Made by a program: the position numbers and the translations under genes
Shown: positions 92-45,629 of the stretch, piece after piece
Position numbering within the stretch: position 1 is the stretch's first letter
Layout of the letters: every line of letters starts with the position of its first letter
Notes under the pieces: model-generated
Database searches by the model: none
What the model saw: the letters and a program-made list of their open reading frames with translations, nothing else
What the model was told of the DNA's origin: nothing
Assembly (NCBI RefSeq): GCF_005405925.1
Contig: NZ_BJHV01000002.1
Coordinates: 1-64,000 of the forward strand
DNA length: 64,000 bases
Direction of reading: 5' to 3'
From: Streptomyces antimycoticus
Lineage (GTDB): Bacteria > Actinomycetota > Actinomycetes > Streptomycetales > Streptomycetaceae

Positions 92-1235
92 TCAGGCGGG
101 AGGAAGGCCTGGTAGCACGATCCCCGTGTATGCGGCGAGCACGCTTCCCAGCGCTCCACTGACGACGGGAGAGTTGAGGATGCCCATGATGGAACTGCCC
201 CACCGCTGGAGCCTGCTGGGGTCGGGCGAGCCGCTGGCGGCCTCGGCTTCCATACGTGTGGCGAGCTGGGTGAACTCGATGACGTCGTCTTCCGGCAGCT
301 CCAGGATCGGTGCGGCCTGACGCAGGGCGCGGGCGAGCATGACGACCGCCGTGGGGTCGATCCCGTCCTTGTTGGTGGTGGCGTTCATGGTGAAGTCGCG
401 GCTGTTCGCGGCGATGTTGCCGGTGTTCTCGCCGATGTGGAAGGTGACGGTGTCGCCAGGTTTCGGCTGGTTGATGTGTTCCTGCACGCTTCCTCCTGCC
501 AAGGCGCAGCTGGCGCCCTGGGGTGTGATGGCGACCGTGGCGGGGTCGGTGTCGATGGCTTCGATGAGGTCGTGCTCTGCCAGGTAGGAGAGCGCTTGAT
601 GCAGTTCCGAGCCAGTGATCTCGGCTCCGGCGAAGTACGAGCCGGGCGTCGCGAGGAAAAGGGCCGGCTGATGGGCGTCTGGTCGCCTGCGGTGTCGTAG
701 AGCCATCGCAGGAAGGCGTCCATCGTGTGGCGCAGCCGGGCGGCGCGGTCCTTCTGAAGGTTTTTCAGCCGTTGTACAGCAACGACGCCTTCGTCGGTGA
801 GGTGGACGTCGGTGGCTCCGGTCATGACGCGGGCGATGGTCACCAGGCCGTGTTGCTCGAGTTGGAGAGCAAGGACGGTGGGATCTTCGTCTTCGAGCTG
901 ATGTTCTTCGACGAACCGGGTCACGTCGACGTATTCGGCTGGGCGCTGTTGGTGGTTGGCGTCCAGCCACATCAGCAGTTGTGCCAGGTAGGCACTGCTC
1001 TCGATCGCCCCGCTGCGGCTCAACACGCCTCCAGATGTGCTGCTTTCGGCCTGGATCTGCACACGAGGATGGTTGCGCCGCGCGGCCTGCTCCAAGCTCT
1101 TCTTCAAGCCCCGACGTATGCCTTCGAGAACTTGTCGAAGTCGCGGGAGCTGATGCCACGGGCCACGATGCCCTCCTGTCTCAGGTGCCTCACAGCGAGC
1201 GTACGGAGAGGGTCTGACAGTGAGCCGTCCGCTCG
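92..1235 (-). pseudogene. Frameshifted paralogue of the 1307-2641 protein ('GNIAANS' C-terminal module)
   Basis: Coding sense is continuous in protein terms but moves between frames. A short N-terminal piece (VRHLRQEGIVARGISSRDFD...) ends in one frame near 1110. The middle (about 1110-670, containing 'LLMWLDANHQQRP' and 'HLTDEGVVAVQRLK') is in a second frame, and the C-terminus (about 670-92) is in a third. The C-terminal 'VTFHIGENTGNIAANSRDF' closely matches 'VTFHIAANNGNIAANSTGV' in the neighbouring upstream gene, so the two are tandem paralogues. At least two one-base shifts, near 1115 and 665, are needed to restore one protein. Either the copy is decaying or the sequence has indel errors. 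No function is recognised. Confidence 0.6.
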
Positions 1236-1306
1236 TACGTCTGCCGATCCATCGCGTGCTGGAAGACCCTTTGCCAGAGCGCTCTACGGGCTGGGTATGC
1301 CTTGCT

Positions 1307-2641: not shown

Positions 2642-2738
2642 ATTGTCGATGTCCCCCGATGAGGCGATGTGGTGATACTGAGGGACGCTAGCGGAGGGAG
2701 TCACGTCAAAGCACTCCGGCGCCGTCCGTCCCTGCGTC

Positions 2739-2992
2739 TCAGCCGTGTCCGCGTGGGAACAGGCGCAGGTGCGCCGGTGGGCTGGGCGAGCTTTGGGCTG
2801 CGGGGCGCGTGCCCAGCCGTGGACGTGCATGGTCTCGGTCTCCCAGTCCTCGAAGAGCTTCGGCAGCGCCTTCGGGTCGCGGTCCGGGTCCCGATACCAG
2901 CGGAGAAGGCCATCTCGGTCGTCCTGGCCGACCCGCAGGTACATCGTGTGAGGGCACAGACCGCCAGCATCCCGGGGGCTGTCTTCCTGGCA
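2739..2992 (-). pseudogene. Decayed copy of the CxxC zinc-ribbon protein found at 5.1-5.5 kb
   Basis: The stretch WYRDPDRDPKALPKLFEDW matches WHRDPDRDPKALPKLFEDW of the better-preserved gene at 5.1-5.5 kb almost residue for residue. In this copy the upstream CxxC...CxxC half is scrambled (only 'LCPHT' remains) and a frame change after APQPKA is needed to recover the matching PPAHL tail. It therefore looks like a truncated, frameshifted duplicate. It runs in frame into the following gene only because stop codons are rare at this GC content. Confidence 0.6.
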
Positions 2993-3007
2993 CCCGAACC
3001 CGTTGTG

Positions 3008-4222
3008 TCATACGTCGACCAGGTCCAGGAGGTTCTGGAAGCGCCGGGCGACGTCCCCATCCGAGCAGGCCCGCTTCACCGCACGGTCGTCCTGAAGGCC
3101 GCTCAGGTCATCGCGAATGACCTCGCGGCCCGCCTTGAACATCTGCTCGATCAGAGGCGCGGCGCTGTTGCTGTAGAAGACCTTGCGGTTGCGGCCCATC
3201 GTGCCGTAGCCACCCGGCTCCCCGAGGTAGCACAGAGTCATCCATCGGACGATCTGCACCCGCACGTCGGCGGGGACGGCGGCGAGCCCGCCGAACTCGG
3301 GGAACTGCCGGAGGGCGGTTCCGTGGGAGGAGTTGGCCCTCCATCTGTGGCCGATCTTCTCCAGGGTCTCAAGCTGGTTGCGGAAGAAGGCGGTTCGCTG
3401 GGCTTTACGGAAGTACGGCAGGATGCCGGCCGCGTGGGCGACGCGGACCTGGAGCTCGGTGAGCGGCACGCGTCCGATCTTGTCCATCTGGTGCTTGGCC
3501 AGGTCGACACGTACGCCGTCGCGGGTACAGGGGGAGATTTCCGCGATCAGGGTGTAGCAGTTTCCGCGGACGAGTTCGGGCTCCGAGTCGTTCAGGGCCA
3601 TGCTCAGCAGGAACTTGAGGATCTCCAGCTGCCGGGTGTCGGGGGCGTGCTCGTAGTCGGTCAGGAGGTCGGGGTCCCAGGCGACGGGGCCCGACGCCTG
3701 GACGATTTGCTTGACCTCCGAGACGTGGATGAGCGTGATGGGGTCGCGGGAGAGGACCGCGTCGACGCAGGTCTTGAATATGTAGATGCAGTCCTCGATG
3801 CCTGCCTCGTACTCGGCATCCTCGTGCTCCAGGTCGCGGCGGATGTCGTAGGCGCGGGTCATCTTGCGCCACTCGGGTCGGCTCAGCAGTCCCATCCGGT
3901 ACGACAGGTCGATGAGCTTGGCCGTGGAGTAGTTCTCGATGTCCTCGGCGCCGCGGTCGCCGCGGTTGATCGGCGGCAGCTTGTGCGCTGTGGCGACTTC
4001 GGCTGCGATGTCAATGCCAGCGATCTGGACCTTCTCGCGGAGGTCCTGGACGGCGGCGTTCAGCAGGCGCTGGCACGCGCTGCTCGGGTCCACCGGCAGC
4101 AGGCGCCGAACGCGTTCGATCAGCCCTTTGGACTGCCACTGCGGCCGGATTTGCCCCATGATCGCGGGGATTTCGCTGTCCGAGATCAGATCGCTTGCCG
4201 GGTGCAGTACAACTTCCCCCAC
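3008..4222 (-). CDS. Hypothetical protein with R-x4-H (HEPN-type) motif
   Basis: A 404-aa soluble, helix-rich protein starting at a GTG (4222) preceded by AAGGAG at good spacing. Residues about 100-150 read as two helices around YDIRRDLEHEDAEYEA; R128-x4-H133 followed by acidic residues is the arrangement seen in catalytic HEPN RNases and toxins, where R and H form the active site. The C-terminal half (FRNQLETLEKIGHRW..., MTLCYLGEPGG) is not recognised. If HEPN is right, it would cleave RNA in a toxin or phage-defence setting. The fold assignment is from the motif alone and could be wrong. Confidence 0.55.
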   Translation of the reverse strand: MGEVVLHPASDLISDSEIPAIMGQIRPQWQSKGLIERVRRLLPVDPSSACQRLLNAAVQDLREKVQIAGIDIAAEVATAHKLPPINRGDRGAEDIENYSTAKLIDLSYRMGLLSRPEWRKMTRAYDIRRDLEHEDAEYEAGIEDCIYIFKTCVDAVLSRDPITLIHVSEVKQIVQASGPVAWDPDLLTDYEHAPDTRQLEILKFLLSMALNDSEPELVRGNCYTLIAEISPCTRDGVRVDLAKHQMDKIGRVPLTELQVRVAHAAGILPYFRKAQRTAFFRNQLETLEKIGHRWRANSSHGTALRQFPEFGGLAAVPADVRVQIVRWMTLCYLGEPGGYGTMGRNRKVFYSNSAAPLIEQMFKAGREVIRDDLSGLQDDRAVKRACSDGDVARRFQNLLDLVDV

Positions 4223-33499: not shown

Positions 33500-33708
33500 C
33501 GGCGTCCCTTGCGCAGGGTGATCCAGGTGGTGACCAGGGCGGCGGCCACGCCGATCGCGCGGTGGGCTGCCTGGTCCAGCTCCATCAGCGCCGTGCCGGG
33601 CCCGGAGACGTCCTGGACGGGCTCGGGGTACGCGGTGCCCCCGCCTCCGGCCTTGCGGACGACGGTGGCGTGCTTGATGTAGCCGGTCTTGCCCGTCTTC
33701 TCCGCGAG
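33496..33708 (-). pseudogene. C-terminal half of a split backbone membrane-protein gene
   Basis: Reads LAEKTGKTGYIKHATVVRKA, then SGPGTALMELDQAAHRAIGV and AAALVTTWITLRKGRR, ending in a GTGA overlap. It has no start of its own. The pattern is what I remember as the end of a Streptomyces plasmid membrane protein of the form 'AITHG-IDRR-PLLW-LA-K-GK-GYI-H...GTALMELDQ-H...AA..TT'. The matching N-terminal half, ending IDRRDPLLW, lies at 43.7-44.1 kb on the same strand. The 10 kb between them is therefore an insertion. Confidence 0.75.
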
Positions 33709-33723
33709 TATCGGCAGGTTCGG
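33709..33723 (+). repeat. Left terminal inverted repeat of the 10-kb element
   Basis: TATCGGCAGGTTCGG, pairing (with one gap) with CCGAAGCCTGCCGAT at 43697-43711. Confidence 0.5.
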
Positions 33724-33827
33724 ATATTCGAAAGTGCGGAATAGCTACTGACTCAGACCCTTGAGGCGCCAGGGCGTCCATACCCAAGACCGGAGATATG
33801 CATTGGCGTGCCATAGCTTCGGTCGGC

Positions 33828-34349
33828 ATGCTCACTACCGTGATCGCTGCAGACAACTCAACCGATGCCACTGTCGCCGTCCCTGTCAGTGTGCGCGATC
33901 TCCTGCTCCGAGATCTGCCTGCGTGCACCTGGTCTGGGTCAGCCGCTCATCTGCGCCGGGTAGAACGGGAGCTGGCCCGCGCCGCGGTGGGCGAGGTGGA
34001 GTACCTGGCTGTGTGCACCCCTACCGATCTCCCGGTGGCAATCGGAGGTGTCGACTACCAGGTGTCCGAAGGAGCCGGCACCTTGTGGCAGCTCGCCGTG
34101 CTGCCCGCGCTTCAATCCTGCGGCTTGGGAACGCTGATGGTCCGTGCCGCCGAACAACGGATCAGGGAGCGAGGCTTGCGCAGGGCAGAACTCGCCGTGG
34201 AGGAGAACAACCGTCGCGCTCGCGCCCTGTACGAGCGCCTGGGCTATGTCGCGTACGGCTCCGCGCCGGATGCCTGGGAAGAGGAAGGACCTGACGGATT
34301 GATCCGCCGCCATGAAACGACATGCGTTCTTATGCGCATGGAACTTTGA
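33828..34349 (+). CDS. GNAT-family N-acetyltransferase
   Basis: Begins at ATG 33828 (MLTTVIAADNSTDATVAVPV) or 33798. The core is a GNAT fold: YLAVCTPTDLPVAIGGVDYQ, TLWQLAVLPALQSCGLGTLM (the acetyl-CoA pyrophosphate loop Q/R-x-x-G-x-G/A appears as QSCGLGTLM), then RRAELAVEENNRRARALYER, LGYVAYG. The N..A..LYE..GY pattern is the usual motif B end. The substrate is unknown; a resistance or small-molecule role is possible. It is the leftmost cargo gene of the 10-kb element. Confidence 0.8.
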   Translation: MLTTVIAADNSTDATVAVPVSVRDLLLRDLPACTWSGSAAHLRRVERELARAAVGEVEYLAVCTPTDLPVAIGGVDYQVSEGAGTLWQLAVLPALQSCGLGTLMVRAAEQRIRERGLRRAELAVEENNRRARALYERLGYVAYGSAPDAWEEEGPDGLIRRHETTCVLMRMEL

Positions 34350-34438
34350 GGCGGTCGCCGAGGGTGGGGCCCCGGGCCGGTGGCTTGATCGGTCGGTGAA
34401 TCTTGATCGCTGCCGAGCCTGCTGATTAGGTAGCTGGC

Positions 34439-34984
34439 ATGCCTGAGCTCGGACCCGTCGTCTGGCCACCTGCCCCGATCAGGACCGAGAGGCTCGTACT
34501 CCGTGGGCCTGAGGCCCGGGACCGTGCGGCGTTCATCGAGCTGCTGGCGTCGCCAGAGGTGCACACCTACCTCGGCGGCCCCCGGCCAAGTGACGAGCTT
34601 GAGCGCGAGATGCCCGGAGTGCCCGAGCGGTGGCCCGGGAGTTTTGTCGTTGATCTCGACGGGGCGATGATCGGCCAGATCCTGCTCAGGAGAGCACCGG
34701 AGCACCGTCGCCCGGCTGCCGAGGGGAAGGTCGATCTCGGCTACCTGTTCCTGCCACGGGCGTGGGGATTCGGGTACGCCGCCGAGGCGTGTGCGGCGGC
34801 ACTCGACTGGTTCGACAGCGTCCTTCCCAGCGAGCCGGTGGTGCTCACCACCCAGACCGCCAACGTCGGCTCGATGAGCCTCGCGGCAAAGCTGGGGTTC
34901 ACCGAGGTAGAACGGTTCCATGCCTGGGACGCCGAACAGTGGCTCGGCATGCGGTCCCCGGTCACGCCCTCTGATTGTTTGTAA
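34439..34984 (+). CDS. GNAT-family N-acetyltransferase (RimJ/RimL-like), 3' end altered by IS21
   Basis: A 181-aa protein. IRTERLVLRGPEARDRAAFI, SPEVHTYLGGPRP, FVVDLDGAMIGQI, LGYLFLPRAWGFGYAAEACA (acetyl-CoA loop RAWGFGYA) and NVGSMSLAAKLGFTEVERFH are RimJ/L-type features. The native stop can be rebuilt: the IS21 element sits at codons TCT GAT TG(A), so the original C-terminus was ...SPVTPSD; the present one is ...SPVTPSDCL using an IS-derived TAA. The change is minor, so the enzyme is probably still functional. Confidence 0.82.
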   Translation: MPELGPVVWPPAPIRTERLVLRGPEARDRAAFIELLASPEVHTYLGGPRPSDELEREMPGVPERWPGSFVVDLDGAMIGQILLRRAPEHRRPAAEGKVDLGYLFLPRAWGFGYAAEACAAALDWFDSVLPSEPVVLTTQTANVGSMSLAAKLGFTEVERFHAWDAEQWLGMRSPVTPSDCL

Positions 34985-35082
34985 GCACTTCTTTGGGCTC
35001 CACTGCACGGACCGAAAGTGGCTCCACGACGTAAGAAGTTGATCTGGCTCCACTTGAGGTAAAGCCGTGCAAGGCTCACGGG

Positions 35083-35928
35083 ATGGACTACGTGTTCGAC
35101 GCTCCGCCCATTGACCGGGAACTTCTTGACTTCGCTGTCCGCCTGGTCAGCCGTGCTGGGCAGATGTCCGTGAAGGGCTTCTTCGGTGACTGGCACAGCC
35201 GTCGCAAGGAGGACGGGAGCGAGGTCACCGAGGTCGACGAAGCGGTTGAGGAACTGATCAGGGCCGAGTTAGGCCGCCGTGCCCCGGAGGACGGGGTCTT
35301 CGGCGAGGAGGGAGGCGCGACCAGCGGAACATCCGGACGCCGATGGATCATCGACCCCATCAACGGCACGAGCTACTTCACCCGCAGGGTTCCGCTTTTC
35401 TCGAATGATCTCGCCTACGAAGACGAGCACGGCCCGGCCATCGGCTTGATCAACATGCCTCTGAGCCAGCAGATGATCGTGGCCGGGCGTGGTCTGGGGT
35501 GCTGGGTACTGCCTGACCCGGAGCCGGACCTGCAGTCGGGCTACCGTGCCCGGGTCACAGAACGGGCCAGCATCCGCGCAGCCAGGACCCAGATGCACAA
35601 CCCGGTCGGCTGGCCGGAGGAACTCCTTTCCACTCTCCACCGGCAGGTCTTCCTGCTGCCCTCGATGGGCGGCATCGTGGATCTGGTCACGGGCCGCGCC
35701 GATGCCGTGGTGATCGCCGGTCCGCCGATGGGTTACGAGGACGTGGCACCGATGCCCGTCATCGTCACGGAGGCAGGCGGCCGAGTGACCGACCTGAGCG
35801 GGACGTCCGTGCTGGAGGGCGACATGACGGTGCTGGCCACCAACGGTCGGCTCCACGACGCCTTCTTGCACCTGGTTTCGGGCTTGCCGCGCCGCCGTGA
35901 CCTGCACGCCCTCGACGATGGTGATTAG
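35083..35928 (+). CDS. Inositol-monophosphatase-family protein, IS21 passenger, active site altered
   Basis: A 281-aa protein. ELLDFAVRLVSRAGQMSVKG, SEVTEVDEAVEELIRAELGR, DGVFGEEGG and WIIDPINGTSYFTRRVPLFS follow the IMPase/HisN plan (usual motifs EE, DP(I/L)DGT and WD.AA). Two deviations are visible: the metal-binding DPIDGT is DPINGT (Asp to Asn), and the usual W-D-x-A-A near the end is YEDVAPMPVIVTEAGGRVTD. The first change may weaken or remove metal catalysis. It lies inside the IS21 ends with its own start, so it travels with the element. Confidence 0.75.
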   Translation: MDYVFDAPPIDRELLDFAVRLVSRAGQMSVKGFFGDWHSRRKEDGSEVTEVDEAVEELIRAELGRRAPEDGVFGEEGGATSGTSGRRWIIDPINGTSYFTRRVPLFSNDLAYEDEHGPAIGLINMPLSQQMIVAGRGLGCWVLPDPEPDLQSGYRARVTERASIRAARTQMHNPVGWPEELLSTLHRQVFLLPSMGGIVDLVTGRADAVVIAGPPMGYEDVAPMPVIVTEAGGRVTDLSGTSVLEGDMTVLATNGRLHDAFLHLVSGLPRRRDLHALDDGD

Positions 35929-36113
35929 TACGTCGGCCTGCGCTGCACCCATGGCTGGGGATGTTCGCGAGTACGCCGACCGGAAAGTCCGCGACGTGCC
36001 CTCTTTGGAGTGAATGCACTGGTCCGTCCGCCCGGCGACGGCAGGGTTTGTGTGTCGATCACGGTCATGTCGGAGGCCGTGTTGCTTGATCACGGTCGTG
36101 TCGGGAGGCCGGG

Positions 36114-37748
36114 ATGGGTTTGTCGCGGGCGGAGTTGTTCGCTGCGATCCGGAGGGACAAGCGTCTTGATCCGGAGCTGTCGCAGCGGGCTCTGGCGGAG
36201 AAGTACGGGGTGCATCGCAGGACGGTGCGGCAGGCTCTGCTGTCTGCGGTTCCGCCGCCGCGGAAGAAGCCGCCGCCGCGGGCTGCGGTCCTGGACCCGG
36301 CCAAGCCGTGGATCGACGCGATGCTGCGGGAAGACGCGAACGCGCCGCGCAAGCAGAAGCACACTGCACGCCGGATCTACCAGCGTCTTGCCCATGAGTA
36401 CGACTTCGACCTGGTGTCCTATTCCACGGTCTGCGATTACGTGCTGGCCAGGCGCCCGCAGATCGAGGCCGAGGTGCTGGAGGGCCGCCGGCACCTGACG
36501 GGGATGGTTCCGCAGGTTCATCTGCCCGGCGAGGAAGCCGAGGTCGACTTCGCCGATGTCTGGGTCCGCCTGGCGGGCCAGGTCGTCAAGTGCCACCTGT
36601 TCACACTGCGGCTGTCGTACTCCGGCAAGGCCGTCCACCGCGTCTATGCCTCGCAGGCCCAGGAATCCTTCATGGAAGGGCATGTCGAAGCGTTCAACAT
36701 CCTGGGCGGAGTGCCGACCCGGCACATCCGCTACGACAACCTCAAGCCAGCGGTGAACCGTATCTGCACCGGCCGCAGCCGCATCGAGTCCGAGCGGTGG
36801 GTGTCCTTCCGGGCCCACTACGGCTTCGACGCTTTCTACTGCGTTCCCGGCGAGGACGGCGCCCACGAGAAGGGCGGGGTCGAGCACGAGGGCGGCCGTT
36901 TCCGCCGCACCCACCTGGTCCCGGTTCCCGAGGTTGCCACGCTGGAAGAGCTGAACGCGAAGATCGCCGAGATCGACGCGGCCGAGGACGAACGGATCCT
37001 CGCGGGGAGGCTGACCACCGTCGGCTTCAACTTCTTCACCGAGGCCGACCAGCTGACGCCGCTGCCGTTGGAGGAGTTCGAGTGCGGCATCACGCTGACG
37101 CCGAAGGTTGACCGCAGCAGCCGGATCACCGTGAGGCAGTGCCACTACTCGGTGCCGGCCCGCTTCATCGGCCAGAACGTGCGCGTGCTGCTGCGGGGCA
37201 ACGAACTCCTCGTCTTCGAACGGCGGGAGATCGTCGCCCGCCACCCGCGGCTGACCCGCAGGGGCGACTTCCGCGACGAACTCGACCACTACCTGGAGAT
37301 CCTGCTGACCAAGCCCGGAGCAATGGCCGGCTCGACCGCGCTAGTCACCGCCCGGCAGAACGGCTCGTTCACCGAGGTCCACGAAGCGTTCTGGGCCGCG
37401 GCCCGGACCGCCCACGGGGACGCGGCCGGGACACGGGCCCTGATCGAGGTCCTGCTGCTGCACCGCCGAATGCCCGCTGACGTTGTCGAGCAGGGCATGG
37501 CCGCCGCGATCCGGGCGGGCACCACCAGCGCGGACGTCGTCGCCGTCGAGGCGCGCAGGGCCGCCGCGCTGGCTCCGCCCCCAGCCGACGACCTGGACGA
37601 CGAGGGCGACCCTCCGCCCTGGGCCGAGCCAAGCGGCGTGGTGTCGCTGACAGCCCGCCGGGCTCAGCTGCCCGAGGACAGACGGCCGCTGCCGGACGTC
37701 GCCCACTACGACCAGTTGCTGTCACGTCAACCGAAAGGCACCGCATGA
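36114..37748 (+). CDS. istA: IS21-family transposase IstA
   Basis: A 544-aa protein. The N-terminal HTH is RRDKRLDPELSQRALAEKYG-VHRRTVRQAL; the DDE core has EEAEVDFADVWVRLAGQ (first D), TRHIRYDNLKPAVNRI (second D, IRYDNL) and GAHEKGGVEHEGGRFRRTHL (E). The C-terminal part has CHYSVPARFIGQNVRVLLRG. It appears full length and intact. The upstream 185 bases (35929-36113) carry no gene. Confidence 0.93.
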   Translation: MGLSRAELFAAIRRDKRLDPELSQRALAEKYGVHRRTVRQALLSAVPPPRKKPPPRAAVLDPAKPWIDAMLREDANAPRKQKHTARRIYQRLAHEYDFDLVSYSTVCDYVLARRPQIEAEVLEGRRHLTGMVPQVHLPGEEAEVDFADVWVRLAGQVVKCHLFTLRLSYSGKAVHRVYASQAQESFMEGHVEAFNILGGVPTRHIRYDNLKPAVNRICTGRSRIESERWVSFRAHYGFDAFYCVPGEDGAHEKGGVEHEGGRFRRTHLVPVPEVATLEELNAKIAEIDAAEDERILAGRLTTVGFNFFTEADQLTPLPLEEFECGITLTPKVDRSSRITVRQCHYSVPARFIGQNVRVLLRGNELLVFERREIVARHPRLTRRGDFRDELDHYLEILLTKPGAMAGSTALVTARQNGSFTEVHEAFWAAARTAHGDAAGTRALIEVLLLHRRMPADVVEQGMAAAIRAGTTSADVVAVEARRAAALAPPPADDLDDEGDPPPWAEPSGVVSLTARRAQLPEDRRPLPDVAHYDQLLSRQPKGTA

Positions 37749-38557
37749 GCACGACCGAGACCACGGCCACGCAAATCCCCTCACCCCGCCGGGACATGGG
37801 CCCGGAAGAGGCCGTGGACACGGCCATCGACGAGGCATGCCGGGCCCTGCACCTGCCGACGATCCGCCGTCGGGTCCAGGAGATGGCCGGCGCGGCGATG
37901 CGCCAGCGGTCCAGCTACAAGGACTTCCTTGCCGACCTGCTGGAGGCCGAGTGCGCCGAACGCGAGGAACGGCGCAAGCAGCGACTGGTCCGGGACGCCA
38001 GCTTCCCCCGGCCCAAGCGCCTGGAGGACTTCGACTTCGAGGAGAATCCGAATGTCACACCGGAACTTGTCGGCATTCTGTCCGACCCGACCTGGGTCAA
38101 AGCGGGACAGCCGCTCTGTCTGATCGGCGACTCCGGCACCGGGAAGTCCCACCTGCTGATCGGGATCGGCACGGCGATGGCCGAGGCTGGGCTCAGGGTC
38201 CGCTACACGACCACGGTCAACCTGGTCAACGAGCTCGCGGAGGCCGCGGACGAGAAGAAGCTGACCCGCCTCATCGCCCGTTACGGCCGCGTTGACCTGC
38301 TCTGTCTGGACGAGTTCGGCTATCTCGACCTGGACAAGGCCGGCGCCAAGCTGCTGTTCCAGATCTTCACCGAGCGCGAAGAGAGGCGGGCCATCGCGAT
38401 CGCGTCGAACGCCCCGTTCTCGGAGTGGAAGCAGACCTTCACCGATCCCCGTCTCTGCACGGCGATCGTCGACCGGGTCACCTTCAACGCGCACATCGTC
38501 GAGACCGGAACCCAGTCCTACCGCTTCGCTCAAAGCCAGCGGAAGCGCCGCCGCTGA
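37745..38557 (+). CDS. istB: IS21-family helper ATPase IstB
   Basis: A 270-aa AAA+ protein, start overlapping the istA stop (ATGA). An IstB-like N-terminus (AGAAMRQRSSYKDFLADLLE), Walker A IGDSGTGKSHLLIGIG, Walker B DLLCLDEFGYLD and sensor I AIAIASNAPFSEW are all visible. It acts with IstA in target selection. Confidence 0.93.
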   Translation: MSTTETTATQIPSPRRDMGPEEAVDTAIDEACRALHLPTIRRRVQEMAGAAMRQRSSYKDFLADLLEAECAEREERRKQRLVRDASFPRPKRLEDFDFEENPNVTPELVGILSDPTWVKAGQPLCLIGDSGTGKSHLLIGIGTAMAEAGLRVRYTTTVNLVNELAEAADEKKLTRLIARYGRVDLLCLDEFGYLDLDKAGAKLLFQIFTEREERRAIAIASNAPFSEWKQTFTDPRLCTAIVDRVTFNAHIVETGTQSYRFAQSQRKRRR

Positions 38558-39603
38558 CCTCCTCGAACAACTGCGGCCGGCCTCCGTGACGGGAGGTCGG
38601 CCGCAGCCGTTTCGGGCCCGGCCGTCAAGTCCCAGTGCCGACCGCGCACCATCGCCCGTTCTCGTCCAGCCGCCGCGGCCACTGGGCGGTCCGCGACCTG
38701 AGTCGAGTCGGGTCGGCAACCCTCCACGCACCTGTCGGGGGCGCGCTGATGGAGGTCCACCGAGGCTTCAAAACTACCGTCAACACCCCCCACCCCGGCC
38801 AGCGGAACCACCCGATCGAAGTGGGGCCAAATCACCTTGCTACACCGGCGTGAATCACACCAGTACACGCCCCCTCCACCCCGGCAGTGGAGCCAAAACA
38901 GCTCCGTGCAGTGGAGCCAAAACAAGTGCTTACAGACACTCTGATTGAGACTGTGCCCGGCGGGGGCGTCGTAGACCAGGCTGTACCGCCAGAACAGGCG
39001 ACGCCGGATCCGGGCGCCGGGCAGTTCCTGCGCGGCCGCAGCCCGGATGTCCCCCAGAGTCTCCTGCGGAGGGGTGGTGGGCGCCGTCATGTGCAAGGGC
39101 AGCGCGGCGGCGCGGGCCGGATGCTTGACGAGCCCCATGACCGGATTCAAGAGCAGGGCCAGCAGGGAGACGAGCAGATCGACGCGTCCTGCCTCCCGAT
39201 AGCAGCCGACGACCACAAGACGCCCGCCCGGAGCGAGACAGCCGCGCAGTTCCCGCAGGGTGGCTACCAGCGGCAGGTGATGCAGGACGGCGACCAGAGT
39301 GACGGCGTCGAAGCGCCGGTGCGGGTCGCGCCCGGCGAAGTCGGCTTCCACGATGGTGACCGCCGGGTCGTCGGCGAAGCGCTTCGCCGACGCGCGGGCC
39401 ATCCCGGGGTCGGGTTCAAGCCCGGTGACGGTGACCGCCCGACGACGCAGAAGTGCGGCAAGATTCCCCGCACCGCACCCGATGTCGAGGACGTGGCGGG
39501 CCTTGGACGCAGCCACCCGGCCGGCGATCCAGGGGCCGTAATGGTCGTTGTGGCTCCATGGGTGCCGCTGATTGAAACGGTGGAGGTAGGAAAGCAACGC
39601 CAT
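38530..39603 (-). CDS. Class I methyltransferase, C-terminus extended by IS21 insertion
   Basis: ATG at 39603. SAM-binding motif I HVLDIGCGAGNLAALLRRRA, acidic GLEPDPGMARASAKRF, and FDAVTLVAVLHHLPLVATLR, CLAPGGRLVVVGCYREAGRV are classical. Coding sense from the native gene ends with FWRYSLVYDAPAGHSLNQ. Beyond that the frame enters the IS21 right end (SVCKHLFWLHC...) and goes on antisense to istB until 38530, adding about 130 junk residues. Removing the IS predicts a native end ...SLNQRA overlapping the convergent GNAT stop. The enzymatic domain is complete. Confidence 0.75.
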   Translation of the reverse strand: MALLSYLHRFNQRHPWSHNDHYGPWIAGRVAASKARHVLDIGCGAGNLAALLRRRAVTVTGLEPDPGMARASAKRFADDPAVTIVEADFAGRDPHRRFDAVTLVAVLHHLPLVATLRELRGCLAPGGRLVVVGCYREAGRVDLLVSLLALLLNPVMGLVKHPARAAALPLHMTAPTTPPQETLGDIRAAAAQELPGARIRRRLFWRYSLVYDAPAGHSLNQSVCKHLFWLHCTELFWLHCRGGGGVYWCDSRRCSKVIWPHFDRVVPLAGVGGVDGSFEASVDLHQRAPDRCVEGCRPDSTQVADRPVAAAAGRERAMVRGRHWDLTAGPETAAADLPSRRPAAVVRGGQRRRFRWL

Positions 39604-39662
39604 GGCGTCACAGTAGACAGAACGGCGCCTCGCCGGGCGCCCCGGCACCGACGTGCGGGCGA

Positions 39663-42101
39663 TCATCGGCGAGCGACCTCCGCTGCGTAGGCGGTTCTGA
39701 CAGCTCCTGCGGCCCATCGTTCGGCAGCGAACGGGCTGATGCCGAGAAGGCGCTGAAGGACGGCCGGCGGCACCTGGACGCAGAGATCGAGCAGGGCCGC
39801 GCAACGTCCGGCTTCGGAGGGGAGGCCGATGTTGCGGAGCCGGGCGGCGAGTCGACTGCTGGACAGCGGCTTGCCTGGCTGCTGGGTCGGGAACAACCAG
39901 GGTGCGTTGAGCTCGTTGGACATCACCATGTGCTCCTGATTGCGCGCGATGTCGACGAGCTGCAGGACGAGGTTGTCCAGGGGCGGCGGCAGCCGCAGCG
40001 GGGTCTTGTTGATCTGCAAGGCGACCCCGTGGTCGTCATGGTGAACGTGGGCGGTGGTCAGGCGGCAGATCCTGGCGGGGGTCTGTCCGTAGAGAAGGAC
40101 CATGAGCCCGGCGACGCGGTCCCGGGTCTCGAATGAGTCGTCGTTGAGCAGGCGGCGGGCGATGATCCAGCGCTCATCCGCGTCGAGAGGCCGGTGGAAG
40201 ATCCGTCGGGGCCGGGCGGGGATGCTTATGCCGGAGGCGAAGTTGCTGCGAACGGCCCAGGTGACGAAGGGTTTCGCGCTGTAGGGGCCCTGGTTGTTCT
40301 CGGAGGTGAGCCAGAGGTCGATGAGCGGCTGTCGGCAGGTCGCCAGGGTGGCGTTGTGCTCTTTGAGCCAGCTCAGGAAGACGATGGCCTTGGTGATGTA
40401 GACCTGGGTGATGTCTGCGGTCGAGGCGGAGATCGGCTTGCCGCGGGCCCGTCGACGGATGCGGGCAATGCGGTCCCAGCGGGCAAAGGCGGTGATCAGA
40501 CGGCGATCGTCGGGGTCCTCCAGGGCGGCGGTCTTGTGCTCGATCCACCGTTCCAGCCGGGCCAGGTACTCATCGCGGACGGGCAGGATGCCAGCCGAGA
40601 CCAGAACGGAGCGGAAGTAGTCGACGGCCAAGTCCTTCGGACCGGTCATGCGGGCGTCGAGGGCCTCGTGGGTGAGCTCGCAGGTTCCAGCACCGAGGTC
40701 TGTAATCAGCTTGTTCGCTGTAGGGGACTCCCGCAGGTAGAGCAGTGTGCGGCGGGGGTTGAAGTCCAGGAGGGCCGAGGCGACCTTCTCCAACTCGGGT
40801 CGGGCCTTGCCGTCCGGGGGTGTCAGCAGCGTGCGTAGGTGGCGTTCGCCGGCGCATCGGTGGCAGAGACCGTAGTGGAAGAGCCTCTCGACGGTGCTGC
40901 AGTTCTGGCAGGGCTTGCGGGCTTCGGGGGCGACCTTCCAGCAGTTCTCGCAGAACGGTCCGCGCTCGGTCCGGGCGACCACTCGGGAGGGGCGTCCGCA
41001 GTCGGTGCAGGGCTCCAGTTTCGTGAGGCAGGCCCGGCATCGCGGGGTGCCGGCGGCGCTGTGGAAGCACGGACGCGTCTTGCCGCACGCGGAGCACTGC
41101 ATGGTGGGCGGCTTCCGGCAGGTGGCGCAGAGCGGCCCCTGATCGGTGCGGACGGAGACCGCCCGGTCTCGGCCGCAGCGAACGCACCGCTCCTGGCAGG
41201 CTGCCTCCTGGTCGCGGCAGCCGGTGCAGAACGGGGAGCCGTCGGTGTCCCTGCCCGCGACGGGTCGGGTCCGTCCGCAGCGCTTGCAGGGCTCGGCCGT
41301 TGAGCGGTTGTAGCAGGTGCCGCAGACGCGGAGTCGCTTGATCGAGTGGCTCAGCCGGACCGCCCGGCCGCAGTGCGGGCATGCTGGGACGGGGACGTCG
41401 CGGGCGCCGGCCTGGTGGAGTCGCTCGGCGAGCAGGAGGGTGCGGGGGCCGTAGTGGTGGGCACGCCCGGCGAGCAAGCCGGGCTGGTTCTGGAGGTCCC
41501 AGAGCAAGCGGCGAGTGATCGAGGCGTTGTGGCCGGCGACATTGGCGATCAGGGGCCGGAGCACGGCGTCGTCGAGTCCGAAGTTGAGTCTGTGCAGGTA
41601 GCTGAGCAGGTCGGTGGCGGGGTCCTCGGTGCACTCGGCCTTGTAGCAGAGTCGGCAGACCTCGCGACCAGCGCGGTCGCGCCCGTAGGGCGGGGTGCCA
41701 CCGTTCCCGCAGACCTCGCATGCCCCGGCGGTCCAGCCGGTTCTCTTGCTGTGGCCACGGCCGCACGGTGAGCAGAGCCGCTGTCCCGAGCCGTCGGTGT
41801 TCGTCAGCGGTCGCAGCTTCCCGCAACGCGAGCAGGGCGGCCGGACGACGTGGGCGGCGCCGAGTTCGACCAGAGCGCGGATGAGGCGTTCGACGGAGGC
41901 CGGGCCTTCGGCCCGGCCCGAGATCAGCAGGGTGGGGTCGTCGTCCAGGGCCTGCGCGAGACGGACCGCAGCGGGCTTGGAGCTGACGGCCCGGCCGATG
42001 GCCGTGCGGACGCTCTCCATCGGCAGGCCCGAGTCGACGGCGGCCACCAGGTCACCGATCACCCCGTAAGGGTCGGACGCGGTTCGGGAGACAGCGGTCA
42101 T
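39663..42101 (-). CDS. Large zinc-ribbon recombinase-like protein (812 aa)
   Basis: ATG at 42101, overlapping the HTH gene stop (ATGA). Residues about 90-430 hold a long series of CxxC pairs (CSRCGKLRPLT..., CEVCGNGG, CPHCGRAVR, CKRCGRTRPV, CVRCGRDRAV, CSACGKTRPC, CTDCGRPSRV, CQNCSTVERL, CHRCAGERH), each like a zinc ribbon. Residues about 480-812 have a tyrosine-recombinase-like plan (core-binding region with ITKAIVFLSWLKEHNATLAT, then RVAGLMVLLYGQTPARICRL, RLAARLRNIGLPSEAGRCAA, LQRLLGISPFAAERWAAG) but no H-x-x-R box or clear catalytic Tyr. It probably acts with the active recombinase as a DNA-binding or structural partner. I know no characterised homologue. Confidence 0.7.
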   Translation of the reverse strand: MTAVSRTASDPYGVIGDLVAAVDSGLPMESVRTAIGRAVSSKPAAVRLAQALDDDPTLLISGRAEGPASVERLIRALVELGAAHVVRPPCSRCGKLRPLTNTDGSGQRLCSPCGRGHSKRTGWTAGACEVCGNGGTPPYGRDRAGREVCRLCYKAECTEDPATDLLSYLHRLNFGLDDAVLRPLIANVAGHNASITRRLLWDLQNQPGLLAGRAHHYGPRTLLLAERLHQAGARDVPVPACPHCGRAVRLSHSIKRLRVCGTCYNRSTAEPCKRCGRTRPVAGRDTDGSPFCTGCRDQEAACQERCVRCGRDRAVSVRTDQGPLCATCRKPPTMQCSACGKTRPCFHSAAGTPRCRACLTKLEPCTDCGRPSRVVARTERGPFCENCWKVAPEARKPCQNCSTVERLFHYGLCHRCAGERHLRTLLTPPDGKARPELEKVASALLDFNPRRTLLYLRESPTANKLITDLGAGTCELTHEALDARMTGPKDLAVDYFRSVLVSAGILPVRDEYLARLERWIEHKTAALEDPDDRRLITAFARWDRIARIRRRARGKPISASTADITQVYITKAIVFLSWLKEHNATLATCRQPLIDLWLTSENNQGPYSAKPFVTWAVRSNFASGISIPARPRRIFHRPLDADERWIIARRLLNDDSFETRDRVAGLMVLLYGQTPARICRLTTAHVHHDDHGVALQINKTPLRLPPPLDNLVLQLVDIARNQEHMVMSNELNAPWLFPTQQPGKPLSSSRLAARLRNIGLPSEAGRCAALLDLCVQVPPAVLQRLLGISPFAAERWAAGAVRTAYAAEVARR

Positions 42102-42427
42102 GAGGGTCGGGCGATCCGGGCCCGCTTGGGGCGGAAGTCGCCGACGCCGGGGGTCTCGGTGCCGTCGGCGGCCTTCTTTGCCCGCGGCCTGCCGGCGGCG
42201 ACCGGTTCGATCAGGTCGTCCATCGAGCAGTCGAGGATGTCCAGCAGGGCCATCAGCACTTTGAGGTTGAGCCGTTCCGGGGTCTCGACCACGAGCCGGT
42301 AGATCTGGCTGGGAGACAGGTCGATGCCCCGTTCGGCCAGCAGGGGCCGCAGGTCGGTGGTGGAGAACATGCCCTTGGTGGCCATGACCTCGCGCAGATG
42401 CCACCGGTAGTCGAGCTTGGCCGTCAT
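42098..42427 (-). CDS. XRE/Cro-type helix-turn-helix protein of the recombinase operon
   Basis: A 109-aa protein, overlapping both neighbours (ATGA at each end). WHLREVMATKGMFSTTDLRP, LLAERGIDLSPSQIYRLVVE and LNLKVLMALLDILDCSMDDL form a Cro-like HTH; the C-terminus is basic (AAGRPRAKKAADG). It could repress the operon or act as an excision/directionality factor. The palindrome-like GCATCTAATGC just upstream of the recombinase gene is a possible operator. Confidence 0.8.
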   Translation of the reverse strand: MTAKLDYRWHLREVMATKGMFSTTDLRPLLAERGIDLSPSQIYRLVVETPERLNLKVLMALLDILDCSMDDLIEPVAAGRPRAKKAADGTETPGVGDFRPKRARIARPS

Positions 42428-43560
42428 CGTTCACTCCGTTCCAGGGCCCGGGGGCCGGGGTCGTTGCCGAAGGCCAGGTCGATGGCCTTGAGCATCATCG
42501 TGTTAGCGAAGTCGTCGCTGACCGCGGTGTAGAGGGCGGTCGTGGACGCGTAGAGGTGGCCGACCTGGTCCTGGATGAACTTCGGGTCCACACCGTCCTC
42601 GATGTTGTGCGTGACGTACGAGTGCCGAAGGCAGTGCGGCGTCAGCTCCTCGGGGAGCTTCAGCTCGTCGCGGTAGAGAGCGAACCGGTCCTCGATCTCC
42701 CGCACCCGCAGCCGCCCGCCCCGCTCGGTCAACCACAGGGCCGGGTGACTGGGGAAGCCGTAGCGGGGACGGATATTGACGACGTAGTCCTCCAGCGATT
42801 CGACCGCCCACGGCATGATGCTGGCGACGTTCCGCCGCCGCGGCCCCGAGCCCTTGGTGCCCTTGGCCTTGCGGACGTGCATCATGCCGAACCGCCCGAA
42901 CTGCGGGGCTTTCGCGTTCCGGTAGAGGTCGACGAGGTCCAAGCCGGACGCTTCCGAAGCCCGCAGCCCCCACCCGTAGATCGTCTTGAACACGGTCGAG
43001 TCTCGGTAGGCGGTCAAGGCCCCCTTGCGGCCTCGCTTGACCGCCCGTTCCACTCGCTCATCGATGTGGTCGAAGAAGAGCTGGCATTCCTCCCGCGTCA
43101 TCGGCCGGCGGTCCGCGTCTCCCTCGTAGTCCACGAGGTGTTCGCGCCGGTTGCCGTCGTGGAGGATCGGTGTCGGGTGCGTATCGAAGCGCTCCAGGCA
43201 GATCTCCACCCACCCGTAGACCGGGTTGAGCAGGTAGTCCATGAACAGGCCCACAGCCCCCTGGTAGGCGCGGAGTGTCGCCTTGGACCGGTTGTGCTGC
43301 ATCACGAGGGAGGCCATCCACTCGTCGATGTCGGCAGCCGCCCAGTGCCACGGGTACTCGTTCGTGAAGTCCCTGAACTGCTCAATCATCTTCCTGCGGT
43401 CACTGATCGTCTTCGGCTGAAGCCCTCGCCCGCCCAGCTGCTGGCGTGCCCAGCCCGTCAGCATCGCCTCCAGGACGGCGTCCTCGGGGTGGAGCAGATG
43501 TACGCCAGAGACCAGCTCCAGGTGTGCGGCCCGGGGCACTTCACGCGTACTGTCCGACAC
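42424..43560 (-). CDS. Tyrosine recombinase (integrase)
   Basis: From the GTG at 43560 (GGAGCGGGGA upstream; ATG 43593 is an alternative) 378 aa. A SAM-like core-binding domain (TISDRRKMIEQFRDFTNEYP...RSKATLRAYQGAVGLFMDYL) is followed by a complete catalytic set: R200 in YGWGLRASEASGLDLVDLYR, H309-x-x-R312 in TPHCLRHSYVTHNI, H335 in QVGHLYAS and Y344 in TALYTAV. It should be active and is the likely integrase of the 10-kb element. First gene of a three-gene coupled operon. Confidence 0.9.
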   Translation of the reverse strand: MSDSTREVPRAAHLELVSGVHLLHPEDAVLEAMLTGWARQQLGGRGLQPKTISDRRKMIEQFRDFTNEYPWHWAAADIDEWMASLVMQHNRSKATLRAYQGAVGLFMDYLLNPVYGWVEICLERFDTHPTPILHDGNRREHLVDYEGDADRRPMTREECQLFFDHIDERVERAVKRGRKGALTAYRDSTVFKTIYGWGLRASEASGLDLVDLYRNAKAPQFGRFGMMHVRKAKGTKGSGPRRRNVASIMPWAVESLEDYVVNIRPRYGFPSHPALWLTERGGRLRVREIEDRFALYRDELKLPEELTPHCLRHSYVTHNIEDGVDPKFIQDQVGHLYASTTALYTAVSDDFANTMMLKAIDLAFGNDPGPRALERSER

Positions 43561-43593
43561 TCCCCGCTCCCTCTCACCAGAGGACGGAATCAT

Positions 43594-43725
43594 GCATCTA
43601 ATGCACGACGCCAGGCAAACAGCCTGTTCAAGGGGGCTTCCAAGACGGGACGCCAGGTCAGAATGGAGACGCTAGAATCCCCGCACTACGCAGGTACCGA
43701 AGCCTGCCGATCGCGCATCTGATGC
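43594..43725. repeat. Pair of GCATCT(A/G)ATGC motifs flanking the element end
   Basis: GCATCTAATGC at 43594-43604 (just upstream of the recombinase start) and GCATCTGATGC at 43715-43725 (just outside the right inverted repeat), 121 bp apart. Each is nearly palindromic. They could be binding sites of the HTH protein or part of the attachment site. The 100 bases between hold no gene. Confidence 0.45.
43697..43711 (-). repeat. Right terminal inverted repeat of the 10-kb element
   Basis: CCGAAGCCTGCCGAT on the plus strand; its complement ATCGGCAGGCTTCGG matches the left end with one extra base. Confidence 0.5.
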
Positions 43726-44141
43726 AATTCCACGGGGTTCCAGAGCAGCGGGTCGCGGCGGTCGATGATGCCGTGGGTGATCGCGTTGGCCGCGGCGCCC
43801 GTCAGCAGAGCGCTGGCGGGAACGCGGTACCCGAGGGTGCGGGTGACGGCGAGGGTGGAAGCGAGCTGTACGGCGCTGTAGCTGGCGACGTGTCGGCTCA
43901 CCGAGCGGCGGCCGTAGGCGCTGGCGGTGCAGGTGCGGCCTTCCTTGCCGTGCCGCCAGGGGTTCTCTTCCACCGGGGAGCCGTCGTTCTTGTAGACCAG
44001 GTGGGAGCCGTGCATGCCCTTGGTCATCGCGTCGTGCTCCCGCTGCACGAACTGGTCCCCCAGTGCGTGGACTCCGTCGAAGACGGCGGTCAGGGCGGCG
44101 ACCAGGGCGAGGCCCTCGATGGCGCGGAGGCGATCGGTCAT
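43712..44141 (-). pseudogene. N-terminal half of the split backbone membrane-protein gene
   Basis: ATG at 44141 with GAGGAG ten bases upstream. MTDRLRAIEGLALVAALTAV, FDGVHALGDQFVQREHDAMT, SVSRHVASYSAVQLASTLAV, TRTLGYRVPASALLTGAAAN, AITHGIIDRRDPLLW: several short hydrophobic spans typical of a small integral membrane protein. After LLW the frame leaves the family pattern (NPVELHQMRD...) and stops at 43686 within the inserted element. The missing end is at 33496-33708. Confidence 0.75.
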
Positions 44142-44344: not shown

Positions 44345-45076
44345 CTACTTGGCGAGGTGGTCCAGGGCGCGGTGCAGCAGGGGGCGGTGCGCGGCGTAGA
44401 GGGTGCGTCCGGCGGCGGTGATCGCGGCGTCGAGCTGGTCGAGGGAACCGAACGGCCACCAGTTGGCGTCGAGGGCGTCGTCGGCGGCGACGGCAGTCAC
44501 CGGGGCGGGCAGCAGGTAGAGCGCGCTGGTCGAGGCAACCCAGGCGTGATCCGAGGCCCGCCAGTCGTCCACGACGTCCTGACCGAGGATGACCGGCCGG
44601 TGGTCGGAGAGGTCGACGCCGGTCTCCTCGCGCAGCTCGCGGACCAGGGCCGTCGGTGCGGTCTCGCCCGGATCGACCATGCCGCCCGGGATTGCCTCCA
44701 CGCCGATGTCGTCCCGGGTGATCAGCAGGACCCGGCGGTCCTGGCCGGTGCCCGCGACCACGATCGGGTCCGCGGCGGCGTTCTCGCCCCACTTCCCGAG
44801 ATTCCGGCCGGTGCGGCCGGTGCGACCGTGCGGGTGCAGGGGCCAGCCCCGCGCGTCGAGCTGGAACGGAACGAGGGCGTCGGCCTGCCGCTGGGGCCAG
44901 TCCTGCACGTCGGCCGGGGTCGCGGCGGCCTCCGCCCAGCCGGGCACCTGGCGGGCCAGAGCTGCGGGCAGCAGTTCGGGCGGCGTAACGTCCGCCGGCG
45001 TGTACTCCGGCTGGCTCACCGACCAGCAACCCAATCCGACGGGGATGGTCTCGGTGATCTCGCTGTTGGCGGTCAT
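44345..45076 (-). CDS. Nudix hydrolase (ADP-ribose pyrophosphatase type)
   Basis: ATG at 45076 with GAGAGGA upstream; 243 aa. A family-typical N-terminus (WSVSQPEYTPADVTPPELLP; RQADALVPFQLDARGWPLHP) is followed by the Nudix box IPGGMVDPGETAPTALVREL-REETGVDL, which fits G-x5-E-x7-REUxEE-x-GU, and a C-terminal DALDANWWPFGSLDQLDAAI. The long N-terminal region and NPxGRTGRxGRGxLGKWG-like segment (HPHGRTGRTGRNLGKWGENA) resemble the TRPM2/NUDT9 branch that cleaves ADP-ribose. Could clear ADP-ribose made in NAD-based defence or ADP-ribosylation (inference). Confidence 0.85.
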   Translation of the reverse strand: MTANSEITETIPVGLGCWSVSQPEYTPADVTPPELLPAALARQVPGWAEAAATPADVQDWPQRQADALVPFQLDARGWPLHPHGRTGRTGRNLGKWGENAAADPIVVAGTGQDRRVLLITRDDIGVEAIPGGMVDPGETAPTALVRELREETGVDLSDHRPVILGQDVVDDWRASDHAWVASTSALYLLPAPVTAVAADDALDANWWPFGSLDQLDAAITAAGRTLYAAHRPLLHRALDHLAK

Positions 45077-45095
45077 GGTCTGGTGTCCTCTCAGG

Positions 45096-45629
45096 TCATG
45101 CGGCAAGCAGGTGTTTGGCCGGGGGAGCGATGTAGGAGGCGGGGTCGGCGGGCGTGCCGTCGTAGCACTCCAGGCACGAGCCCAAGGTCTTGAGCGGGAC
45201 GCAGTGGAAGTAGCGTCGGCGGCAGGTGCCGCATGTCTGGCGGGCCGCCATCGCCTTGTCGAGCGCGGCTTCCTTCGCGAGCGTCAGCGGGAGCTTCGGC
45301 TTCGCCAGGTCGATCCGGTACAGCCACGCCCATCGCTTCCCGCCGCGGCATTCGATCCGTGCGACGGGCTCTTGGCCGCCGGGGCGCAGTCCCATCTCCC
45401 GCAGCTGGCGGCGGGTCGCGAGGTTCTCGCGCCCGGCCTGCTTCCACCGGAAGACTGGTAAGGAGCCGTCGCCGGGGTCGTACGGGTCGACGTCGACCAG
45501 GTCCTCGTCCTGGTCGGCCATCACCTGCTCCAGGAGCCGGGAAGTCGACGCTGGGGCACCGGGTAGCGGGGGCCGGGACGCTGCGGGCGGGGCCCAGCCG
45601 ATCCGGCGGCGCGGGCGAGGGATGAGCAC
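45096..45629 (-). CDS. RRQRL-motif-type zinc-binding protein
   Basis: GTG at 45629 with GGAGGAA eight bases upstream; 177 aa (an ATG at 45521 is an alternative). RENLATRRQLREMGLRPGGQ is the signature R-R-Q segment, RIECRGGKRWAWLYRIDLAK follows, and the C-terminal CGTCRRRYFHC...GSCLECYDG forms a four-Cys zinc site. The family is common on Streptomyces plasmids, often beside transfer genes; role unknown. A damaged copy of its 5' end sits upstream of ftsK at about 48.36-48.49 kb. Confidence 0.78.
   Translation of the reverse strand: MLIPRPRRRIGWAPPAASRPPLPGAPASTSRLLEQVMADQDEDLVDVDPYDPGDGSLPVFRWKQAGRENLATRRQLREMGLRPGGQEPVARIECRGGKRWAWLYRIDLAKPKLPLTLAKEAALDKAMAARQTCGTCRRRYFHCVPLKTLGSCLECYDGTPADPASYIAPPAKHLLAA

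What the first reader, a model, noticed from the sequence alone, without database searches (positions are those of the whole stretch)
39663..43560. Three overlapping genes: tyrosine recombinase, Cro-like HTH, 812-aa zinc-ribbon recombinase-like protein
Seen: the three genes overlap by ATGA at both joints. The first has a full catalytic set (R200, H309-x-x-R312, H335, Y344). The third has at least nine CxxC zinc ribbons and a recombinase-like C-terminal plan without the catalytic residues. Inference: an active integrase working with a large, catalytically dead, zinc-ribbon DNA-binding partner and a small regulator. Recombinase-in-trio and Tn554-type elements use several recombinases, but a long zinc-ribbon array fused to a dead recombinase is not something I recognise.
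Basis: partly seen in the sequence, partly recalled or inferred. Interest (0 to 1): 0.85.

Follow-up and report, generated by a model that had tools for sequence, protein, structure and literature searches.

The report
Mobile element that splits recombinase genes
The three genes are the moving machinery of an actinobacterial mobile DNA element, and many relatives of it insert at one exact spot, beside the active-site codon of other DNA-recombinase genes.

Summary
In detail: three ATGA-overlapping genes encode a complete tyrosine recombinase (YR), a Cro-type HTH protein and an 812-aa protein with 16 CxxC motifs plus a C-terminal YR fold. The module recurs: 26 of 29 loci fetched with the HTH gene alone carry all three in order. 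It is one end of a mobile element. In the window this is 33709-43739 (10,031 bp), splitting a membrane-protein gene between codons 134 and 135 without duplication. Relatives are often 4.07-4.22 kb (12 of 20 with both ends found). One genome has the same 4,074-bp copy, one mismatch, in two sites. Of 33 loci with a clear left end and flank, 14 lie in other YR genes, 3 nt after the catalytic-Tyr codon; those 14 fall in one clade. A second clade lies in YR genes behind the HxLRH box. I call it a new variant of the multi-recombinase elements (Tn554, GInt, SE): one active YR, a zinc-ribbon YR-fold partner that probably lost catalysis, and insertion at conserved active-site codons. The proteins' separate roles are inferred.

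The parts
33709..43739 (-). whole integrative element (10,031 bp); recombinase end at 43739, far end at 33709
   Evidence: alignment to uninterrupted plasmid NC_015951 (L082) ends at 43740 and resumes at 33708 with consecutive bases of the empty site, 6402/6403; same break against L081
43740..44141 (-). 5' part (codons 1-134) of the split target gene, a small protein that I read as a membrane protein; no Pfam family
   Evidence: tblastn 94% over residues 1-134 of the intact 205-aa protein; no Pfam match
33508..33708 (-). 3' part of the same target gene (codon 135 onward)
   Evidence: tblastn 91% over 67 residues
43713..43739 (-). left end: 6 variable bases AACCCC followed by the conserved left-end motif
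   Evidence: left motif score 30.6 in the window; conserved motif and variable 6 bases in relatives
33709..33742 (-). right-end motif
   Evidence: score 31.7 in the window; same motif at the right junction of L084 and at the contig end of L008
43715..43725 (.). palindrome GCATCwGATGC at left end, possible binding site
   Evidence: this and 43594-43604 are the only two places in the window; 0.08 matches expected; function inferred
43594..43604 (.). second, near-palindromic copy of that site at the first gene's 5' end
42424..43593 (-). tyrosine recombinase, 389 aa from ATG (378 aa from the GTG at 43560)
   Evidence: PF00589 E 3e-16; R-K-H-R-H-Y set invariant in 75 of 75 rows
42098..42427 (-). 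Cro/C1-type HTH protein, 109 aa
   Evidence: HTH_26 E 5.7e-16
39663..42101 (-). 812-aa protein: helical N-terminus, 16 CxxC (eight presumed zinc ribbons), C-terminal tyrosine-recombinase fold 528-812 lacking HxxR and the usual Tyr
38887..39606 (-). cargo: methyltransferase-like reading frame, apparently cut at its 3' side
   Evidence: read by eye; not scanned by Pfam
36114..38557 (+). IS21-type istA/istB inside the element
   Evidence: PF22483 and PF01695
35083..35928 (+). cargo: inositol monophosphatase family protein
   Evidence: PF00459 E 8.8e-34
34439..34984 (+). cargo: GNAT acetyltransferase
   Evidence: PF13302 E 1.4e-21
33798..34349 (+). cargo: GNAT acetyltransferase
   Evidence: PF00583 E 4.7e-15

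Best explanation
The three genes are the recombination module, at one end, of a site-specific integrative element (a tyrosine-recombinase transposon) of Actinobacteria. SHOWN: the element has two defined ends, sits precisely in a gene with no target duplication seen, occurs with or without cargo, and has moved (near-identical copies in different sites of one genome; empty sites elsewhere). SHOWN for relatives, partly by eye: clades have their own target. One clade mostly inserts 3 nt after the catalytic-Tyr codon of diverse YR genes; another just behind the HxLRH box of YR genes; the window's clade uses a plasmid membrane-protein gene. INFERRED: the first protein does all strand cutting and joining; the 812-aa protein pairs with it on the ends or target as a non-catalytic subunit, its zinc-ribbon array adding DNA grip and perhaps target choice; the HTH protein binds the end palindromes and controls expression or direction. 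Movement presumably runs through a circular form carrying a short variable spacer.
For: Empty sites: window against L082 and L081, L033 against L158 (98/97% identity, blocks overlap by 2 bp) and L121 against L159 (about 89-90%, blocks abut). In the plasmid collection 87 records hold the window's target gene; of the 40 listed, the 6 whose match runs on to residue 144/145 all have the trio right behind it, the other 34 end at 134 or before (one of these, NZ_CP107962, has a trio elsewhere). Mobility: L120 (chromosome) and L121 (plasmid) of one genome share a 4,074-bp element with 1 mismatch and unlike flanks; L136/L137, 99.0% over 3,840 bp, two sites in one genome; one plasmid with three copies, two in a duplicated segment, the third in a different YR gene. 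Target, without any selection: TAY at -6 to -4 in 17 of the 33 loci with clear left end and flank; 14 of the 17 are YR genes. PF00589 matched 12 of the 19 target peptides of relatives that I scanned, reaching profile position 165-171 of 172. An open, YR-like frame continues in the expected frame beyond the far end in 11 of 11 YR loci where a right end was found; intact homologues of two of these targets match over the join. Tree: 14 of 15 Tyr-codon inserters in one 25-row clade, 100/100. HxLRH clade: a YR C-terminal box follows the trio in 3 of 4 loci tried.
Against: Of the 33 loci, 14 are YR-Tyr, 5 membrane protein, 4 other or partly identified (L015, L045, L119, L154) and 10 unassigned. L022, L045 and L119 have TAY without a recognised YR, so the DNA, not the gene, may be what is read. 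L011, L036 and L051 belong to the same clade but lack TAY. One element (L162-L164) cuts 7, not 3, nt after TAY. The list of 15 YR targets was drawn up by eye with the Tyr in view, so its 15 of 15 is not independent; L017, L023 and L029 in it have no Pfam match. No excised circle was seen. HTH and zinc-ribbon roles rest on architecture alone. R766 and Y805 of the third protein are conserved. The tree's bootstrap had not settled and 39 of its 73 rows have no assigned target.
Confidence: 0.85

Rival explanations
1. The trio is a resident plasmid-maintenance module (dimer resolution), not a mobile element; adjacent breaks come from other events.
For: The window is a separate contig of a three-contig genome, perhaps a plasmid (inferred), and 248 plasmid records hold a match to the third protein, many partial.
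Against: Precise empty sites, defined ends in unlike flanks, chromosomal copies, and several copies in one genome.
Confidence: 0.04
2. The upstream YR seen in many relatives is a fourth gene of the module, as in GInt or RIT elements, not a target.
For: A YR C-terminus lies just upstream in about 15 loci.
Against: These YRs look unlike one another, a matching C-terminal frame lies beyond the far end (11 of 11 with a right end), and uninterrupted homologues exist, one on a record without any third-protein match (pREL1). In the window the upstream gene is not a YR.
Confidence: 0.03
3. The element does not seek active-site codons as such: it needs a short DNA sequence like ACnAC-N6-TAY, and YR genes are hit because their conserved STTxxY box often spells it. 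(A refinement of the main reading, not exclusive of it.)
For: An ISL3 transposase (L119) and non-YR frames (L022, L045) with TAY at the same place were hit; ACnAC and TAY are the conserved positions.
Against: YR genes are still by far the largest class in that clade; in the second clade another YR box is hit.
Confidence: 0.6
4. The third protein is the true catalyst or an equal partner, using Y805 or another Tyr.
For: Y805 conserved 56 of 61, R766 59 of 61.
Against: No HxxR and no third His at the expected places, an Arg near the first-Arg position in only 32 of 61, Trp near the usual Tyr position (positions placed by eye from motif spacing).
Confidence: 0.07

Closest known systems
GInt genomic islands (ginABCD; PMC5385486, abstract start and passages seen)
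   Same: Recombinase operon at one end, cargo behind it; one YR-like protein (GinC) lacks the first catalytic Arg; insertions can change the C-terminus of the gene they enter
   Different: GInts have three YR-like proteins plus GinD; here one active YR, one HTH protein and one zinc-ribbon YR-fold protein; the words actinobacteria, streptomyces and zinc have 0 occurrences in its main text
Strand-biased circularizing integrative elements, SE (intA-tfp-intB-srap; PMC10214605, abstract and passages seen)
   Same: Coupled operon at one end, a non-catalytic YR-fold protein (Tfp), six variable bases at one end
   Different: SEs have two active YRs and Srap and were reported from Gammaproteobacteria only; no zinc-ribbon array mentioned in the passages seen
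Tn554 and actinobacterial Tn554-like pairs (PMC3414803, abstract, passages and section 10 read)
   Same: YR transposon with one ordinary and one unusually long recombinase-type protein, Actinobacteria and their plasmids
   Different: There the long protein is said to keep a catalytic motif; the pREL1 611-aa protein, the one example I compared, shows no similarity to the 812-aa protein (E above 3) and is a homologue (93%) of the gene that L033's element splits
Tn1549 integrase and XerH (structures)
   Different: Recombinases without zinc ribbons (recalled)
Gamma-mobile-trio, GmtXYZ (recalled; only search listings seen)
   Same: Three-gene recombinase module with cargo (recalled); first gene hits NCBIfam GmtY weakly
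   Different: 21.8 bits against a cut-off of 340; no NCBIfam match at E 0.1 for the other two

Membership tests
Tyrosine recombinase (first protein) | R-K-H-R-H-Y catalytic set | tested here: met
   invariant in 75 of 75 rows
Tyrosine recombinase (third protein) | core-binding plus catalytic fold | tested here: met
Tyrosine recombinase (third protein) | catalytic HxxR and Tyr | tested here: not met
   positions placed by eye; use of the later Tyr805 untested
GInt | three consecutive YR-like genes ginABC | tested here: not met
   two YR-like proteins with an HTH gene between
SE | two catalytic YRs (intA, intB) with tfp and srap | tested here: not met
   one catalytic YR in the module; srap homology not searched
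RIT | three adjacent YR genes with catalytic motifs | tested here: not met
Tn554-like | long TnpA-type catalytic recombinase homologous to the known long proteins | tested here: not met
   no similarity to the pREL1 long protein; one example only
Site-specific integrative element | defined ends and precise empty site | tested here: met
   three filled elements compared with empty sites
Site-specific integrative element | circular excised form | not testable with these tools
   needs reads or PCR

The most novel reading that the evidence does not exclude
A separate superfamily of homing-like YR transposons: each clade reads the DNA that encodes a conserved catalytic motif (YR Tyr box, YR HxLRH box, perhaps Walker A or peptidase His motifs), with the expandable zinc-ribbon array on a retired recombinase acting as the target reader. 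By lodging in integrase genes the element rides on, and blunts, other mobile elements, while supplying a replacement C-terminus to the split recombinase.
Probability: 0.35. Interest if true: 0.93.

Novelty: new variant of a known kind. Interest (0 to 1): 0.82.

Why it matters
It gives limits and a testable mechanism to proteins now labelled 'hypothetical protein' or 'site-specific integrase' (248 plasmid records hold a match, many partial). An element that settles at active-site codons of other integrases is a natural case of mobile elements preying on each other, resembling homing introns and inteins in strategy (recalled comparison) but using a recombinase. A probably dead recombinase with a zinc-ribbon array that differs in length between clades offers a way to ask how target choice evolves, and the predictable target sites make the reaction directly testable.

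Tried and rejected
Dimer-resolution module and four-gene module: rejected by empty sites and by the frames beyond the far end. Identity with the long Tn554-like recombinases of PMC3414803: rejected for the one example compared; SCP1 was not held and pRHL2 showed one broken fragment of a third-protein relative. NCBIfam gave no match for proteins 2 and 3 at E 0.1. Phage records held no relative of the first protein at E 1e-40; one viral contig holds a relative of the third protein and the whole trio. Rfam and tRNA scans of the window were empty. A profile-profile comparison of the two recombinase-type proteins was weak (probability 0.7 on a 0-100 scale, E 0.08); the fold comparison carried the case. 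A first regex for the HxLRH-clade right flanks found nothing; a looser one did, except for L053. A Walker A (L013, L015), HYDHxH peptidase (L055, L057, L125, L129, L141) or ATPase (L136, L137) preference rests on my reading of frames, not on a family search. Paper searches listed no description of this trio that I recognised; that is only the open-licence library with those words, and I read no paper whole.
Full report

The module is conserved. Starting from the HTH protein alone, 42 of 394 genomes of the class (the window's own included) have a match at E 1e-15. Of the 29 loci given by that search besides the window's, 26 have a relative of the YR directly upstream and of the third protein downstream; L094, L102 and L103 do not. 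These 29 are the best-scoring part of the matches listed. Starting from the third protein, 73 genome loci were found; 41 cover 700 or more residues, and of the 38 of those with at least 1450 bp upstream, 36 have both partners (not L020, L046). Of the 32 partial ones, 23 have that much upstream and 4 have both partners, so degraded remnants are common. Among plasmid records 248 hold a match and 52 cover at least 80% of the protein in one place.

The third protein varies in size. In the 77 trio loci measured, the 44 with first-gene identity of 50% or more have a median of 810.5 aa and 16 CxxC; the 33 below 50% have a median of 529 aa and 6 CxxC. The script takes the longest frame, so a few broken copies are included.

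Limits of the element. Contigs of five relatives begin at the same left motif (L008, L010, L016, L021, L028), the mark of a collapsed repeat. In the window, the frame reading into the left end belongs to a small protein, by eye a membrane protein, whose intact form is 205 aa in the four empty plasmids examined (L081, L082, L085, L086). Its first 134 codons lie at 44141-43740 and its continuation at 33708-33508. Alignment to L082 stops at 43740 and resumes at 33708, matching consecutive bases of the empty site. So the element is 33709-43739, 10,031 bp. In the plasmid search for this target 87 records matched; of the 40 listed, six continue to residue 144/145 and all six have the trio right behind; the other 34 end at 134 or before, and one of these (NZ_CP107962) has a trio elsewhere. 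Two further filled relatives, L083 and L084, show the same break.

Two more filled/empty pairs agree. L033 against L158: filled 1-2576 matches empty 561-3137 and filled 6673-7075 matches 3136-3538, an overlap of 2 bp. L121 against L159: blocks end at 3135 and start at 3136. No longer target duplication is seen.

Mobility. In one genome the chromosomal copy L120 and the plasmid copy L121 are the same 4,074-bp element with one mismatch; identity outside stops after 2 bases on the left and 1 on the right. In another, L136 and L137 are 99.0% identical over 3,840 bp in two places. A Rhodococcus plasmid has three copies; two lie in a duplicated segment and the third in a different YR gene.

Target choice. 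For the relatives, the frame entering the left end is often another YR, cut just behind its catalytic Tyr. I listed 15 such loci, by eye and with the Tyr in view; in these TAY stands at -6 to -4 in 15 of 15, with a weaker ACnAC further left. Without that selection, TAY is at this place in 17 of the 33 loci with left-end score of 20 or more and at least 40 bp of flank; 14 of the 17 are YR genes, the others are L022, L045 and L119. Pfam confirms PF00589 in 12 of the 15 (L007, L025, L027, L031, L032, L033, L035, L041, L042, L056, L120, L121); L017, L023 and L029 gave no match and were judged by eye. Beyond the far end an open, YR-like frame continues in the expected frame in 11 of the 11 YR loci with a right end (L017, L023, L025, L027, L029, L032, L033, L035, L042, L120, L121). 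The tblastn of the L033 target finds an uninterrupted copy at 99% and that of L121 at 97%. L033's target matches a pREL1 recombinase at 93%; PMC3414803 lists pREL1 among carriers of Tn554-like pairs (section 10 read).

This is not a universal rule. Of the 33 loci, 14 are YR-Tyr; 5 are the membrane protein (window, L009, L048, L083, L084); L154 is YR-HxLRH, L119 an ISL3 transposase (PF01610), L045 a non-YR frame without Pfam match, L015 a Walker A gene by eye; ten are unassigned. L041, a Pfam-confirmed YR target, is below the score cut, as is L030, a DNA ligase. The 33 are not all independent: L120 and L121 carry one element. On the tree 14 of 15 YR-Tyr elements lie in one 25-row clade with support 100/100, together with L119, L045 and nine rows without assigned target, and the window's group of six rows is 100/100. 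The bootstrap had not settled and 39 of 73 rows have no assigned target. In one Rhodococcus element the cut is 7, not 3, nt behind TAY.

A second site in YR genes. In L130, L135 and L154 the YR is cut behind HxLRHxxA, and a YR C-terminal box stands 126-141 nt after the end of the third protein's match (joined by reading, not by an intact homologue). The three tree rows of this type (L053, L130, L154) form one clade, 100/100. For L053 no continuation was found.

How it probably works. Shown: ends, precise insertion, mobility, clade-wise targets. Inferred: the catalytic YR acts at both ends through a circular form; the six bases outside the left motif (AACCCT, AAAGCT, AACTCT and others) look like the short variable bases described for SE (passages) and like the coupling sequences of Tn916 (recalled). 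The third protein would be a non-catalytic DNA-binding subunit, as its authors suggest for Tfp of SE. The HTH protein may bind the two sites at 43715 and 43594.

Cargo. Behind the trio the window's element holds a methyltransferase-like frame (by eye), IS21 genes, an inositol-monophosphatase-family gene and two GNAT acetyltransferases. Of 20 distinct elements with both ends scored, 12 are 4,074-4,217 bp, about the trio alone.

Comparison. GInt and SE share the plan but have more YR-like proteins and other small partners; RIT has three YRs; the Tn554-like long recombinase compared is unrelated in sequence. I therefore call this a new variant of a known kind. I saw no description of it in the library searches.

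Noticed in passing
L029:1-14074: Tandem array with three HTH/third-protein pairs; the first element's target looks like a relative of the trio's own recombinase.
   Followed up: partly
L083:12480-13705: Two right-end-plus-target-tail copies in a row, suggesting a past second insertion at the same site.
   Followed up: partly
L013 and L015, left flanks: Elements sit beside Walker A coding sequence of two different ATPase genes on the opposite strand (by eye).
   Followed up: partly
L055, L057, L125, L129, L141, left flanks: Upstream frames end in His-rich HYDHxH-type motifs of peptidase-like proteins (by eye); these rows group together on the tree with one unassigned row, weakly supported.
   Followed up: partly
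L136, L137: Copies in two different ATPase-type (anti-sigma-like, by eye) genes of one genome.
   Followed up: partly
L162, L163, L164: In this element the junction lies 7 nt, not 3, behind the TAY codon of the target.
   Followed up: partly
own genome, C1:2486959-2488290 and four smaller places: Further partial relatives of the third protein in the host genome, likely remnants.
   Followed up: no
window 36114-38557: IS21-type insertion inside the element's cargo, next to a shortened methyltransferase-like frame.
   Followed up: partly
window 44345-45106: NUDIX-domain gene near the target gene; a NUDIX gene is also annotated upstream of the empty target in L081.
   Followed up: no
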